This document shows positions 20,060-36,883 of a stretch of 64,000 nucleotides of DNA, one piece after another; the first letter of the stretch is position 1, and every line of letters begins with the position of its first letter. The stretch comes from Spirochaetota bacterium. Lineage in GTDB: Bacteria > Spirochaetota > UBA4802 > JAFGJZ01. Position numbers and translations under genes: made by a program. Under the pieces are notes generated by a model that saw nothing but the letters and a program-made list of their open reading frames with translations, was not told the origin of the DNA and did not search any database. The stretch lies in NCBI GenBank assembly GCA_027858855.1, contig JAQIBV010000004.1:1-64000 (forward strand). Direction: 5' to 3'.

Positions 20060-20260
20060 TGACAACTCTTTGTTGTTGCATGTAGTGTCGTTGTAAAGAA
20101 AAGGAGGAAGTCAGGTGAGAATCCTGCACTGGCCCGCAACCGTGTGATCTTGTAGTTAAGATCGAGTCGGATCTTCCTTGAATCGGAATCCACGGGGATC
20201 TGGATCCGTTTTGTATACGTATTAATACAAAACCCGCTATTTGGCGAACCCGTCAACCGA
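20060..20260 (+). ncRNA. Cobalamin riboswitch
   Basis: The core at about 20100-20180 follows the cobalamin consensus in order: GGAAG, then TCAGGTGAGAATCCTG, then ACTGGCCCGCAACCGTG, a 6-bp hairpin GATCTT/AAGATC, and the closing box GAGTCGGATCTTCC, whose CTTCC pairs with the first GGAAG. A second stem (GTTTTGTAT at 20208-20216 with ATACAAAAC at 20225-20233) lies 3'. It lies about 280-430 bases before the start codon of the DUF4465 lipoprotein and no other gene is between them. A TTGACA at 20059 could be the -35 element. Boundaries are approximate. Confidence 0.85.
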
Positions 20261-20537
20261 TTCTCTTTTTACACATAGGCAAATTCTAACAGATCTGATC
20301 AGATGTAATTAGGGAATAATAACACTCTAAAATAGTACTTTTAATAAGGATGCTTGCGTCGTGCGTCTGCTGCTAAATTAATAATTCAGTGGAGGTGACC
20401 GAGAATAGCCCTGTTGATTGCTTCTACGGGAGTACAAATATTCCTTTGTTAGTTCTCTTTTTTAATTGCATTGAACAGCTTTTTTAGAACTGCCCTGTGT
20501 TAATTAATATGTAATAATATTCTAAAAGGAGAATTGA

Positions 20538-21284
20538 ATGAAAGTTTTACAGAAGTACTGTAGCACATTGTTGTTGTTGGCTTTTTTTATATCTTTTACT
20601 GCTTGTGAAGATTATACGAAGGGAAGTACAGTTATTACCTTTGAAGAACTTGATGTACCTGTTGCAGGATACTGGAACGGGTCTGATTTATCAGGTAGTT
20701 TTTCAGTTGATAACGTTAGTTTTCTAAACACTTATAACAGCGATTATATGTCCTGGAATGGTATTGCATACTCTACGATGACCGATACAGAGACAACCGG
20801 TTATGATAATCAGTACAGTGTTTTTCACACATCCGGAAACAATAACTCTGAAGTCTTTGCCATTGCTTATCCCAACGGCGAGGAAAAGTTAATCGAACTT
20901 AATGAACCTGCGGGGATTAAAGGATTCTATGTGACCAATACAACCTATGTTTACCATTCGTTGAAGACGGGCGAAGACGGGTTTGGTGCGGTCACCGTTT
21001 TCGGTGGTGATGATGGTAACGCGGAGGATTATCTTCTTCTGAAAATCCGTGGCTATGATTCAATGGGAGTTTGTACGGGAAATGTAGAATTCTATCTTGC
21101 GGATTACCGTTTTGAAGATAACTCACAAGACTATATAATTGACGAATGGACTTGGGTTGACCTTTCAAAACTTGGGGATTCTGTTAAAGAGATTTCGTTC
21201 GAGATTACGTCTACCGATCTCGGAGATTGGGGTATGAATACACCTGCATATTTTGCCTTTGATGATCTTGCAGTATATTTGTAA
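20538..21284 (+). CDS. DUF4465-domain lipoprotein under cobalamin riboswitch
   Basis: 248 residues. A signal peptide with lipobox SFTAC (Cys 23) predicts a lipid-anchored envelope protein. The mature part matches the DUF4465 beta-sandwich pattern: ITFEELDVP, FYVTNTTYVYHSL, VEFYLADYR, DEWTWVDLSKLG, and the end MNTPAYFAFDDLAVYL. AAAAGGAGAATTGA precedes the ATG. The leader is a cobalamin riboswitch, so the protein should be made when B12 is scarce. From memory, DUF4465 proteins occur in Bacteroidetes cobamide-uptake loci, so a surface cobamide-binding role is a reasonable inference. It is a one-gene unit ending in a palindromic terminator. Confidence 0.85.
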   Translation: MKVLQKYCSTLLLLAFFISFTACEDYTKGSTVITFEELDVPVAGYWNGSDLSGSFSVDNVSFLNTYNSDYMSWNGIAYSTMTDTETTGYDNQYSVFHTSGNNNSEVFAIAYPNGEEKLIELNEPAGIKGFYVTNTTYVYHSLKTGEDGFGAVTVFGGDDGNAEDYLLLKIRGYDSMGVCTGNVEFYLADYRFEDNSQDYIIDEWTWVDLSKLGDSVKEISFEITSTDLGDWGMNTPAYFAFDDLAVYL

Positions 21285-21291
21285 TATTTTA

Positions 21292-21321
21292 CGTAGAGAC
21301 AGGTTATAACCTGTCTCTACG
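21292..21321. terminator. Perfect 30-bp palindrome between convergent genes
   Basis: CGTAGAGACAGGTTA is followed by its exact reverse complement. It begins 8 bases after the DUF4465 stop and covers the uvrC stop codon at 21304, so it can terminate both convergent transcripts. Confidence 0.8.
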
Positions 21322-23124
21322 GTTAAAATAATTGTATATGGTTGCTGCATCCTTTTGGGCAATCGATTCGACAGCGGCGATATCTTTCTCGTCAGATCTG
21401 CGAATGTTCTCAACTGATTTAAAATGTTTTAATAGCGCTGATCTTTTTTTGGGGCCGATTCCGGGAATGGAATCAAGTTCGGATTTTACCGTCGCCTTGG
21501 TTCGAAGTTTGCGATGGTGTGCGATGCCGAAGTCGTGAGTTGCATCTCGCAGCCGTTGTATGATTTTCAACTCCTGAGAATCGTGTGATAACCGTATCGA
21601 TGGTTCACCCGGATCAAGGAAAAGTTCTTCATGCTGTTTAGCGATTGAAATAACCGGGGTTTCCAGACCGAATGCATCCCTTGCTTCAATCGCACGAGCT
21701 AACTGTGTAGGCCCTCCATCAATGACAATCAGGTCCGGCTCTTCCCATCCGTTATTCACTATGTTCTGAATAAAGCGGGCAACCGCCTCATGGATCATCC
21801 CCGGATCATTGGCTTCTGTGTAACCTCTTATTGTAAAGTGGCGATAGCCTGCTTTGTCTGGTTGAGCATTTTTGAAACTAACCATTGATGCGACTGCGTT
21901 TTTTCCCTGTAAATTAGAGATATCAAAGCAGACCATATGGATGGGAACTGTGGGTAGTGATAGAATGTTTTTCAGATTTATCAGATATTTGTTTTTATCC
22001 GAATAGTAGTCCTGTGCCATTTTTTCGGCAATGATTAAATCAATGTTTTTCCGAACCATGGACATGGCACCCTTGTCGTGTGATGAGCGAGGGGCTGATA
22101 TTTTAACAGTGTGCCCAGCAGACTTTGTGAAGTGTTCTTCAAGTATTGAGTGTTCCGGTACCTTCTCCTGGGTTATGATACAGTGAGGTATTTCGTTCAA
22201 AGAGTAGTGGTTAAGAATAAATGTGCGCAGTATCGAGCTGTTAGTAGAGAACGATGAGTTTTCATACAGACGAATTTTACGTCCCGTAAGAACTCCTTTT
22301 CGGAATTCGAACAGTAGCAGAATGGCCTCATCTTTAAAAACATCCATTGCAATGTAGTCGGCATCGTGATTTTGCGGCATCAGAATATTCTGTCGTTCTG
22401 ATATCTTCTGAATGTCAAAGATGATATCCCTGATTTCGGCTGCTTTTTCGAAGCGTGTTTGAGATGAGTAGCGGTTCATGGAATCATTCAGTTTTTCAAT
22501 TACAGGCTCTATTTTGCCTTTTAAAAATAGTTCTGCGCTTCGAACCAAATCAAGATACTCTTCACGACTGATCAAATTACGACAAATTCCTGAACACTGT
22601 CTAATCTGGTAATTCAAGCAGGGGCGTTCATTTTCTGTCAGTGGTAATTTCCGTGTGCATGTCTTTAACCTAAATATTCTATTAGCAGCCTTGATAGTAT
22701 TTCTCGCTGCTTGAGCGTCGGTGTAGGGGCCGTAGTAGTGATTTTTCTTATTAGTAACATTACGTGTAAAAATCAGACGGGGGTACTCCTCACTAAATGT
22801 AACAGCAATATAGGGATAGCGTTTGTCGTCCTTCAAGCGAATGTTAAATCTGGGGCGATGCTTTTTTATAAGAGTGTCTTCAAGCAGAAGAGCTTCAATC
22901 TCTGTTTCGGTGGCAATTACTTCGAAGTCTGTAATCTGATTAACCAGAGTACGAGTTTTGATGTCTTCAATATTATTTTGAAAATAGGAACTGACCCTGC
23001 TTTTTAGCGAGCGTGCCTTTCCGACATATATTATATCACCTATGTGATTTTTCATCAGGTAGACACCCGGAGAGGTAGTTAGCTGTTTTACTTTATCGGT
23101 TATTAGTTCATGAACATTTTTCAT
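21304..23124 (-). CDS. uvrC: Excinuclease ABC subunit C
   Basis: 606 residues. UvrC makes the 3' and 5' incisions around bulky DNA lesions in nucleotide excision repair. The GIY-YIG nuclease is at about 15-95 (SPGVYLMKN, IIYVGKARSLKSRVSSYF). A UVR motif for UvrB binding lies near 200-235, the RNase H-like endonuclease with ISNLQGKNAVASMVSF and DLIVIDGGPTQL near 390-460, and a C-terminal helix-hairpin-helix (LDSIPGIGPKKRSALLKHF) near 550-570. Length is normal. Its last bases overlap nothing, but its first 17 bases overlap the end of the upstream sensor/TPR gene, so it is the second gene of that operon. Confidence 0.96.
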   Translation of the reverse strand: MKNVHELITDKVKQLTTSPGVYLMKNHIGDIIYVGKARSLKSRVSSYFQNNIEDIKTRTLVNQITDFEVIATETEIEALLLEDTLIKKHRPRFNIRLKDDKRYPYIAVTFSEEYPRLIFTRNVTNKKNHYYGPYTDAQAARNTIKAANRIFRLKTCTRKLPLTENERPCLNYQIRQCSGICRNLISREEYLDLVRSAELFLKGKIEPVIEKLNDSMNRYSSQTRFEKAAEIRDIIFDIQKISERQNILMPQNHDADYIAMDVFKDEAILLLFEFRKGVLTGRKIRLYENSSFSTNSSILRTFILNHYSLNEIPHCIITQEKVPEHSILEEHFTKSAGHTVKISAPRSSHDKGAMSMVRKNIDLIIAEKMAQDYYSDKNKYLINLKNILSLPTVPIHMVCFDISNLQGKNAVASMVSFKNAQPDKAGYRHFTIRGYTEANDPGMIHEAVARFIQNIVNNGWEEPDLIVIDGGPTQLARAIEARDAFGLETPVISIAKQHEELFLDPGEPSIRLSHDSQELKIIQRLRDATHDFGIAHHRKLRTKATVKSELDSIPGIGPKKRSALLKHFKSVENIRRSDEKDIAAVESIAQKDAATIYNYFNRRDRL

Positions 23125-34417: not shown

Positions 34418-36883
34418 ATGAAGAAGTATTTTATAAACATGGCAGGCCTAGTTTTTCTGCTATTGATTTCGGGATCTGCCTTATTTGCTCAGGGTGCTCC
34501 ACGTATCAGCGGTACAGTTACCAGTGCGGTTACTGGAGAGCCTGTTGATTTCGGTATGGTCATCATTTTTGAGGCCGAGCGACGAGGAACGATCAATCCC
34601 GATGGTACTTATGATATTTATCTGCCCAGAAACGGCGAATTTACAGTTGAGGTTCGCGCAGACGGCCTACGTCCACTGCGACAGACAGTAAACATTGTCG
34701 GTAATACAACACTGAATGCAGTTTTACAGCCGTTATCAATAACTGGATCTGGTATAACAATACGTGGTGATCGCAAACAGGATCTTTCAAGACGATCGTT
34801 AACTGTTGAAGAGCTTAATGTTGTTCCTGCAACACTTGGTGATTCGGTTTCGGCCTTAACTTCGCTTCCCGGGGTTACAAGATACAGTGGAGGTGGCGGA
34901 GGTGGCTCCAATATGTATGGTCAGCTTACTGTAAGGGGTATGAATCCCAACTCTAACCGTTTCTTCGTTGATGGAGTACCTATCCAGTATCCACAGCATT
35001 TTGGAGGCTTGCATTCCGTTGTAGCAAATAATCTTATTGCTTCAGTTGACCTCTATTCCTCTGCCTTTCCTGCCGAATTTAACGGAGCCATGGGGTCGGT
35101 TATTCAGATTAATACTGTGGACAAGGTCGAGAAGTTCAGCGGAGTAGTTGATATAAATCTGTTAAGTTCCACTTCGACGATCATGACTCCGACCTATTCT
35201 AACAGCTATGTTAATGGTCAGCTAAAAAGGGACAGAAACGGATACTTCATTGTTGCCGGGCGGATAGGATATCTCAGTCTTGTTCTCCCGATTCTGTATG
35301 AGGTTATTGCCGGTGAAAAGATTGATCAGGTACCAAATTACTGGGATTATCAGTTGAAGTACAAACATTATTTTAACAGTCGAAATTCACTCACTTTGAC
35401 TGCACTGGGGGCCAAGGATTGGTGGGATATCCGGCTTTCGGGTAATTTAATAGAACAAACCGACAATACCGTTGATCCAATACTGGAAGGTTTCGAGTTT
35501 AACACTAATCAGATGTTTCATAATCAGATCGCATCATACCGATTTTCAACCGGCAAGATGTCAAACACACTTACTGCCTATTCTTCGTTACCCCGTTATG
35601 AAAACGGGTTTAACCTGGATAACGATCTGGTTGCAGATGTATATAAGGATTTTCAAATCGACACATCACCTTATGAGTTCGGAATAAAAGATGAAATTTC
35701 TTTTGATTATATGGAAGGCATGGGTGAACTTGTTGTCTCTGCGGGTTATACACACTATTATTTTAAACAGAAGGGTGATGTGGTCTCATTTGTGGGATAT
35801 CCTGAATCTGGAGAGCCCGACTATCTGAGGGATGATTCTCTTTATGCCAGAGAGTGGGTAGATAAAAGCTATACCAATAGTCTTTTTTCAGGACATGTAT
35901 CAAATAGTTTGTCTTTAGGTGGATTAACCGTTGTTCCGCAGGTTCGTCTGGAATATCTTGATCGGGCCGAGTCATTTGTCGCCGATCCCCGTGGTCTGAT
36001 AAAATACGAATTGCCTACAGGAACAACAATTTCAGCGGCATCCGGGTTGTATCATGAGTTCGCTCAGACAAATGCCTATAATTTTAATTATAGCCCGGAA
36101 TTCGCTTCGTACGGGAAAGAGGTCGCTCCTGAAAGATCCTTTCAGAATGTACTTGGAGTAAAACAGGAGTTTGGGCTTTATACGGTATCGGTTGAGGGAT
36201 TTTATAATTATTATTATGATATGCTCTCTGTCTGGCCACGCGAGGTTGACGGCAAGTTCATTCCGACAAAAAACAGTGGAGAAAAGCGTTCATATGGTGC
36301 AGAGTTGATGCTTAAAAAAGATTCGCTGCCGCATGCACGCGATTTTTTCGGATGGGTAAGCTATACGTACACACAGTCAGAAAAACGCGAAAATGTTCCA
36401 CTCAATATCGATCCTTCCGGAGCTGGCGAAGATTGGTACCGTTCTCCATACGAACAGGAACATGCCTTTAAGCTGGTTGCAGGTTATAAACTTAACAAGC
36501 ATCTTTTTTCGGCTCAGTTTCAGTTCTACACTTCGCATCCCTATACCAGAATCATAGGTAGTTACGAAGATACCGCGTATCGTGAACAGACCGCCGCAGC
36601 CGGTGAAGAAAAACAGCGTCATGTCCCGGTGTACGACACGGTACGCAATACCGAACATAACACGCCGGAACATCAGCTTGATCTGCGTTATACATATAAC
36701 TCACAGTTCGGCTGGGGAAATGTAAAATGGTATTTCGAACTTGTCGATGTGTATGGCCCGTTGAATAATACCTATTCATATACCTGGTATTACAATGAAG
36801 GATACAGCAGCAAAAACCCGAAAAATGTAAAAGACGAAGGCATAAGCATCATCCCCAACCTAGGAGTAGAAATCTCGTTTTAA
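34418..36883 (+). CDS. TonB-dependent outer membrane receptor with carboxypeptidase-like N-domain
   Basis: 821 residues. Signal peptide 1-24 (ALFAQ-GAP). A CarboxypepD_reg-like domain (about 27-105, RISGTVTSAVTGEPV) precedes the plug (about 125-235), with LTSLPGVTRYSGGGGGGSNM, GMNPNSNRFFVDGVPIQYP, and GAMGSVIQI. A 22-strand barrel then runs to the end, finishing in LGVEISF with C-terminal Phe, the signal for the BAM machine. The substrate cannot be read from the sequence; no riboswitch or convincing Fur site is adjacent. The gene closes the exbB-exbD-exbD-tonB operon and is followed at once by the 76-bp hairpin repeats. Confidence 0.93.
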   Translation: MKKYFINMAGLVFLLLISGSALFAQGAPRISGTVTSAVTGEPVDFGMVIIFEAERRGTINPDGTYDIYLPRNGEFTVEVRADGLRPLRQTVNIVGNTTLNAVLQPLSITGSGITIRGDRKQDLSRRSLTVEELNVVPATLGDSVSALTSLPGVTRYSGGGGGGSNMYGQLTVRGMNPNSNRFFVDGVPIQYPQHFGGLHSVVANNLIASVDLYSSAFPAEFNGAMGSVIQINTVDKVEKFSGVVDINLLSSTSTIMTPTYSNSYVNGQLKRDRNGYFIVAGRIGYLSLVLPILYEVIAGEKIDQVPNYWDYQLKYKHYFNSRNSLTLTALGAKDWWDIRLSGNLIEQTDNTVDPILEGFEFNTNQMFHNQIASYRFSTGKMSNTLTAYSSLPRYENGFNLDNDLVADVYKDFQIDTSPYEFGIKDEISFDYMEGMGELVVSAGYTHYYFKQKGDVVSFVGYPESGEPDYLRDDSLYAREWVDKSYTNSLFSGHVSNSLSLGGLTVVPQVRLEYLDRAESFVADPRGLIKYELPTGTTISAASGLYHEFAQTNAYNFNYSPEFASYGKEVAPERSFQNVLGVKQEFGLYTVSVEGFYNYYYDMLSVWPREVDGKFIPTKNSGEKRSYGAELMLKKDSLPHARDFFGWVSYTYTQSEKRENVPLNIDPSGAGEDWYRSPYEQEHAFKLVAGYKLNKHLFSAQFQFYTSHPYTRIIGSYEDTAYREQTAAAGEEKQRHVPVYDTVRNTEHNTPEHQLDLRYTYNSQFGWGNVKWYFELVDVYGPLNNTYSYTWYYNEGYSSKNPKNVKDEGISIIPNLGVEISF

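What the first reader, a model, noticed from the sequence alone, without database searches (positions are those of the whole stretch)
20060..21284. Cobalamin riboswitch controlling a single DUF4465 lipoprotein
A cobalamin-consensus leader stands before one surface-type lipoprotein gene and no transporter, synthesis gene or alternative enzyme. Established: cobalamin riboswitches repress B12 uptake or B12-replaceable enzymes. Inference: the DUF4465 lipoprotein is a B12/cobamide scavenging protein in a non-Bacteroidetes diderm, possibly serving the TonB-dependent receptor at 34418 or another. This would assign a function to DUF4465 outside gut Bacteroidetes.
Basis: partly seen in the sequence, partly recalled or inferred. 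Interest (0 to 1): 0.65.

Follow-up and report, generated by a model that had tools for sequence, protein, structure and literature searches.

The report
B12-switched B12-binding lipoprotein in a spirochaete

Summary
A compact cobalamin aptamer lies at 20089-20210 (RF01482, 47.6 bits, E 1.3e-7, just under the curated 50). It is followed by a single DUF4465 lipoprotein gene (20538-21284; PF14717, E 1.3e-50). In a sister species of the genus, aptamer and hairpin are 87% identical while the surrounding leader is 16-36%.

DUF4465 proteins (BtuJ1, BtuJ2, D5EK51) are structurally proven B12 binders in several phyla (PMC12751083, PMC13398666), and both conserved B12-contacting tyrosines are present here. 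Among 74 DUF4465 loci from many phyla with enough upstream sequence, 71 carry a cobalamin riboswitch upstream on the same strand.

The likely receptor is not the one at 34418. A second riboswitch in this genome precedes a BtuH-like lipoprotein, a BtuB-like receptor, a beta-propeller lipoprotein and a TonB. That BtuH-like domain occurs in 47 of 84 DUF4465 loci and is fused to DUF4465 in 15 proteins, so the solo DUF4465 gene looks like a detached part of the same uptake system.

The genome needs corrinoids but shows no de novo synthesis. Unexplained: no BtuC or BtuF was found in it, and no true BtuC in its sister species.

The parts
20089..20210 (+). Cobalamin riboswitch aptamer of the compact AdoCbl (RF01482) type
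   Evidence: RF01482 47.6 bits, E 1.3e-7; 87% identical in the sister species while the rest of the leader diverges
20104..20144 (+). Aptamer core with P4 and L5; L5 CCCG at 20133-20136
   Evidence: Core model R1 52.6 bits (this sequence was in the model); sequence read directly and in alignment A6
20184..20208 (+). P13-like hairpin whose loop (CGGG, 20193-20196) can kiss L5; followed by TTTT (20209-20212): probable expression platform, weak terminator
   Evidence: Fold, terminator-like site 20192-20209, loop conserved in three riboswitches of the genus; pairing and termination are inferred
20527..20531 (+). Putative ribosome binding site AGGAG
   Evidence: Sequence; inferred
20538..21284 (+). 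DUF4465 (BtuJ-like) lipoprotein, 248 aa
   Evidence: PF14717 172.7 bits; PDB 9fct E 3.6e-24, 9hmu E 5.1e-20; Foldseek top matches are DUF4465-B12 complexes
20946..20948 (+). Codon of Tyr137, aligned with B12-binding Tyr146 of BtuJ1 (loop DE, NTTY)
   Evidence: Alignment; residue role from PMC13398666
21249..21251 (+). Codon of Tyr238, aligned with B12-binding Tyr245 of BtuJ1 (loop HI, MNTPAYF)
   Evidence: Alignment; residue role from PMC13398666 and PMC12751083

Best explanation
This is a BtuJ-type corrinoid-capture lipoprotein controlled by its own cobalamin riboswitch. When cellular B12 is low the leader is read through and the lipoprotein is made; when B12 is high the bound aptamer locks the L5-L13 kissing loop and stops transcription of the gene. 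The lipoprotein is exported, anchored by Cys23 and binds cobamides through its DUF4465 jelly-roll loops. It then hands them to the BtuB-like TonB-dependent receptor encoded elsewhere in the genome, in an operon with a BtuH-like lipoprotein, a beta-propeller lipoprotein and TonB that has the genome's only other detected B12 riboswitch. Shown here by computation: riboswitch, family membership, conserved binding residues, a B12 riboswitch before both loci, and the gene linkage or fusion of the two lipoprotein families. Inferred: actual B12 binding by this protein, surface location, direction of regulation, termination mechanism, and hand-over to the receptor.
For: Aptamer. Family, fold and binding residues: with the published biochemistry in PMC13398666 and PMC12751083. 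Regulon: only two cobalamin riboswitches found in the genome, this one and C33. C33 operon: riboswitch, lipoprotein, TonB-dependent receptor whose best NCBIfam model is TonB-B12 (TIGR01779, 104.5 bits, under its 599.7 cut-off), propeller lipoprotein, TonB. The C33 lipoprotein's family is in 47 of 84 DUF4465 loci, usually adjacent, and fused to DUF4465 in 15 ORFs; its best PDB fold match is BtuH2 (7biz). Survey: 71 of 74 DUF4465 loci have an upstream same-strand cobalamin riboswitch, although the 44 genomes checked hold only 83 riboswitches in all. Need for B12: a MetH-like enzyme and several B12-type radical SAM proteins, but a single tetrapyrrole methylase, identified as an rRNA methyltransferase.
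Against: The aptamer is under Rfam's gathering score. The terminator-like hairpin is weak, and a long, unconserved 325-nt stretch separates it from the start codon, so the mode of control is uncertain. No binding or expression data exist for this organism. The -3 lipobox residue is Phe, not the usual Leu. No BtuC or BtuF was found in the genome, so the route onward from the periplasm is unknown. The receptor assignment rests on weak family scores.
Confidence: 0.85

Rival explanations
1. The protein binds B12 but mainly works off the cell, on outer-membrane vesicles or as a store, in the way published for BtuJ1 and BtuJ2 of B. thetaiotaomicron, rather than as a partner docked on the receptor.
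For: BtuJ1/BtuJ2 are the DUF4465 proteins shown to deliver cobalamin from vesicles (PMC12751083). The solo gene, separate from the receptor operon, fits a protein made in amounts independent of the receptor.
Against: No data on vesicles in this lineage. In other phyla DUF4465 is fused or directly linked to the BtuH-like domain and often to the receptor, which suggests work close to the receptor.
Confidence: 0.3
2. The aptamer is a decayed or non-functional cobalamin riboswitch and the gene is expressed constitutively.
For: Score just under the Rfam gathering threshold and a weak terminator.
Against: Aptamer, P13-like hairpin and loop are strongly conserved in the sister species while the flanks diverge, and the same design stands before the C33 operon.
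Confidence: 0.05
3. The jelly-roll protein binds another ligand, for example a glycan, and the riboswitch merely ties it to B12 status.
For: Jelly-roll domains are common glycan binders; below the DUF4465 entries Foldseek gives weak carbohydrate-binding matches.
Against: Eight diverse DUF4465 proteins all bind B12 (PMC13398666) and both key tyrosines are conserved here.
Confidence: 0.03

Closest known systems
BtuJ1 / BtuJ2 (BT_1491, BT_1957) of Bacteroides thetaiotaomicron, PDB 9fct, 9qpm, 9i2l
   Same: DUF4465 lipoprotein, cobalamin-riboswitch control, both B12-contacting tyrosines, Foldseek and sequence matches
   Different: In B. theta the gene sits in operons with btuB/btuC/btuD and other B12 genes; here it is a single-gene unit in a spirochaete whose genome shows no btuC or btuF
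D5EK51 of Coraliomargarita akajimensis, PDB 9hmu
   Same: DUF4465 domain in complex with B12, outside Bacteroidetes; best structural match
   Different: Different phylum; riboswitch context not compared here
AdoCbl riboswitch RF01482 (clan with RF00174 Cobalamin)
   Same: Compact aptamer, P4/L5 core, AGUCGGA box, P13-like hairpin with complementary loop
   Different: Scores 47.6 against a gathering cut-off of 50; ligand preference (AdoCbl or MeCbl) untested
BtuH2 (PDB 7biz) and the BtuH domain of BtuG1 (8blw), for the C33 lipoprotein behind the second riboswitch
   Same: Best Foldseek match; the weak profile match to 8blw falls in the C-terminal extension described as BtuH-like; linked to B12 receptor and propeller genes
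   Different: Low TM-score (about 0.3), no significant sequence similarity, no Pfam model

Membership tests
Cobalamin riboswitch (RF01482 / RF00174) | Covariance-model match at the curated threshold | tested here: not met
   47.6 bits against 50 (RF01482); 19.3 against 31.5 (RF00174). The curated threshold is a filing rule, not a functional feature
Cobalamin riboswitch (RF01482 / RF00174) | Significant full-length match with conserved core in a leader | tested here: met
   E 1.3e-7 over model 1-149; conserved in sister species
Cobalamin riboswitch (RF01482 / RF00174) | L5-L13 loop complementarity | tested here: met
   CCCG 20133-20136 and CGGG 20193-20196, kept in three riboswitches of the genus; all three identical at these sites, so no covariation support
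Cobalamin riboswitch (RF01482 / RF00174) | Binds a cobamide and changes expression | not testable with these tools
   Needs in-line probing or a reporter
DUF4465 / BtuJ B12-binding proteins | PF14717 above cut-off | tested here: met
   172.7 bits against 25
DUF4465 / BtuJ B12-binding proteins | Conserved B12-binding tyrosines of loops DE and HI | tested here: met
   Tyr137 and Tyr238 align with BtuJ1 Tyr146 and Tyr245
DUF4465 / BtuJ B12-binding proteins | Augmented beta-jellyroll fold | tested here: inconclusive
   Top Foldseek hits are DUF4465-B12 complexes, E 1.7e-12, but the model is poor (mean pLDDT 59.5)
DUF4465 / BtuJ B12-binding proteins | Lipoprotein signal | tested here: inconclusive
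   Hydrophobic stretch and invariant Cys23; no signal-peptide predictor available
DUF4465 / BtuJ B12-binding proteins | Measured cobamide binding | not testable with these tools
   Needs purified protein
BtuB (for the C33 receptor) | Equivalog model TIGR01779 above cut-off | tested here: not met
   Best NCBIfam model but 104.5 bits against 599.7; called BtuB-like only

The most novel reading that the evidence does not exclude
This spirochaete genus runs an outer-membrane B12 capture system (solo BtuJ, BtuH-like, propeller, BtuB-like, TonB, under B12 riboswitches) without BtuCDF, so the vitamin must cross the inner membrane by another, unidentified carrier.
Probability: 0.35. Interest if true: 0.45.

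Novelty: new member of a known kind. Interest (0 to 1): 0.3.

Why it matters
It extends riboswitch-controlled DUF4465 B12 capture to an uncultured spirochaete. It shows that, among the closest relatives of this protein, the riboswitch-DUF4465 pairing is the rule across phyla rather than a gut Bacteroidetes feature, and ties DUF4465 to an unnamed BtuH-like domain by frequent linkage and fusion. It also exposes a gap: no known inner-membrane B12 importer was found in this genus.

Tried and rejected
Rfam at gathering thresholds gave nothing, which alone would have rejected the riboswitch; the sensitive scan and the sister species overturned that. Receptor at 34418 as B12 receptor: rejected as first choice, since it has no riboswitch and no B12-receptor model match. 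A second structured element in the long leader (20213-20537): nothing credible in Rfam and not conserved in the sister species, so dropped. The weak FecCD match in the genome was a Znu-type zinc permease by sequence and neighbours, not BtuC. Sequence search of the C33 propeller and lipoprotein against PDB gave nothing. The DUF4465 model from five sequences was poor and is used only as weak support.

Full report
What is there. The leader between a MacB/FtsX permease gene (ends 20045) and an opposite-strand uvrC-like gene (21304-23124) holds one transcription unit: a cobalamin aptamer and one lipoprotein gene, 20538-21284. At gathering thresholds Rfam finds nothing in the window. With sensitive settings RF01482 matches 20089-20210 over the full model with 47.6 bits (cut-off 50) and E 1.3e-7; the next family has E 1.6.

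Is the aptamer real? The same-genus genome carries the same gene order with its own RF01482 match (42.6 bits) before its DUF4465 gene. Over 20098-20212 the two leaders are 87% identical, but only 16%, 36% and 26% identical before and after it. A third aptamer of the same type, on contig C33 of the same genome, keeps the core, the AGYCGGATCTT box and a hairpin whose loop reads CGGGGA. That loop can pair with the CCCG of L5 in all three. The hairpin (20184-20208) followed by TTTT is the probable expression platform; the terminator score is weak, and the start codon lies 325 nt further on, so transcription control is more likely than direct masking of the ribosome site. That step is inference.

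The protein. PF14717 (DUF4465) matches with 172.7 bits. The closest solved chains are BtuJ1 (9fct, E 3.6e-24; 9qpm, E 9.2e-24) and D5EK51 (9hmu, E 5.1e-20), all B12-binding proteins. Even a low-confidence model (pLDDT 59.5) finds the DUF4465 structures as its nine best matches, seven of them chains of the B12-binding proteins BtuJ1, BtuJ2 and D5EK51, with a sharp drop after them. Tyr137 and Tyr238 align with BtuJ1 Tyr146 and Tyr245, named as the conserved B12-contacting tyrosines in PMC13398666. Cys23 is invariant in five spirochaete homologues. The gene is rare in the phylum: 4 of 393 genomes.

What was already known. PMC12751083 (2025) named BtuJ1/BtuJ2, showed extremely tight cobalamin binding and a vesicle-delivery role, and described riboswitch-regulated operons. 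PMC13398666 (2026) showed B12 binding by eight DUF4465 proteins from several phyla and lists Spirochaetota among carriers.

Survey. The 80 closest DUF4465 loci in a genome collection come from Bacteroidota, Planctomycetota, Verrucomicrobia-related groups, Deltaproteobacteria, Gammaproteobacteria, Myxococcota, Spirochaetes and others. With a core model (R1; built partly from these loci and the window), 70 of the 74 loci with at least 1 kb upstream, or with an aptamer found in a shorter flank, show a same-strand aptamer upstream: 46 directly, 22 behind other same-strand genes (one gene in 21 of them), 2 with small opposite-strand ORFs that are probably spurious. One more (L087) has a 106-bit RF00174 match in the full-genome search at the matching position, giving 71 of 74; six further loci had under 1 kb upstream and no hit and were set aside. 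Independent RF00174 searches of 44 of these genomes give only 83 riboswitches in all, so proximity is not due to riboswitch density. The sample is the best hits to this protein, not a random draw of the family.

Partners in this genome. Only two cobalamin riboswitches were found, the window's and one on contig C33. The C33 riboswitch precedes a lipoprotein, a TonB-dependent receptor, a propeller-like lipoprotein and a TonB. The receptor's best NCBIfam model is the B12 receptor TIGR01779, far under its cut-off, so it is BtuB-like, not proven. The propeller label is my reading of the sequence: no Pfam or NCBIfam model matched it, though relatives of it sit beside BtuB-like receptors in other DUF4465 loci. 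Three receptors with a Plug domain exist in the genome; the one at 34418 has no riboswitch and no B12 model match.

The link between the two loci. The C33 lipoprotein has no Pfam domain and no significant sequence match in PDB. Its domain occurs in 47 of 84 DUF4465 loci, nearly always on the same strand and mostly within about 100 nt, and is fused to DUF4465 in 15 ORFs in either order. Its model (pLDDT 79.9) has BtuH2 (7biz) as best PDB match with low TM-score, and the weak profile match (E 0.1) to BtuG1 (8blw, residues 435-472) falls in the part that PMC10404256 describes as a fused BtuH domain. The solo DUF4465 gene is thus best read as a detached part of one B12 capture system.

Physiology. 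The genome encodes a MetH-like enzyme and several B12-type radical SAM proteins. Only one tetrapyrrole methylase was found and it is an rRNA methyltransferase, so de novo corrinoid synthesis is unlikely. No BtuC (the weak match is a Znu-type permease) and no BtuF family protein was found. The sister genome has only a weak FecCD match as well, while nine of ten other order members searched and one more distant spirochaete have strong ones; the exception, G009, has only weak matches. Both genomes are incomplete (97% and 89%), so this absence is a lead, not a result.

Verdict. Observation confirmed, interpretation right in function, receptor guess probably wrong, novelty claim pre-empted. New member of a known kind, interest 0.3.

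Noticed in passing
L008:7529-8596 (G000:C33) and loci of alignment A5: A roughly 200-aa lipoprotein domain without Pfam model, in 47 of 84 DUF4465 loci and fused to DUF4465 in 15 ORFs; best PDB fold match is BtuH2. Probably a BtuH-like B12-binding family.
   Followed up: partly
G000 and G001 (the window's genus): No BtuC (both genomes) and no BtuF family protein (own genome) found, although most other members of the order have strong FecCD matches; the inner-membrane B12 route is unexplained.
   Followed up: partly
G007 (L010, L011): A spirochaete of the same order with 17 aptamer-core matches in one genome, several before lipoproteins, including repeat lipoproteins of the 'HASD..D.FG.S.SISG.YAIVGA' type.
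   Followed up: no
L113:6855-9242 (G001:C16): In the sister species a third, weaker aptamer match overlaps the start of the metE (B12-independent methionine synthase) ORF, the classical B12-riboswitch target.
   Followed up: partly
L031:4695-10739, L064:5841-11228, L090:4125-10172: Very large proteins (about 1800-2000 aa; planctomycetes) with one BtuH-like domain and three DUF4465 domains in a row.
   Followed up: no
window:32233-36883: Cluster resembling ExbB, ExbD and TonB with a TonB-dependent receptor carrying an N-terminal carboxypeptidase-like domain; no riboswitch, substrate unknown.
   Followed up: partly
window:20213-20537: A long 325-nt leader after the aptamer that is not conserved in the sister species and has no known RNA family.
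   Followed up: partly
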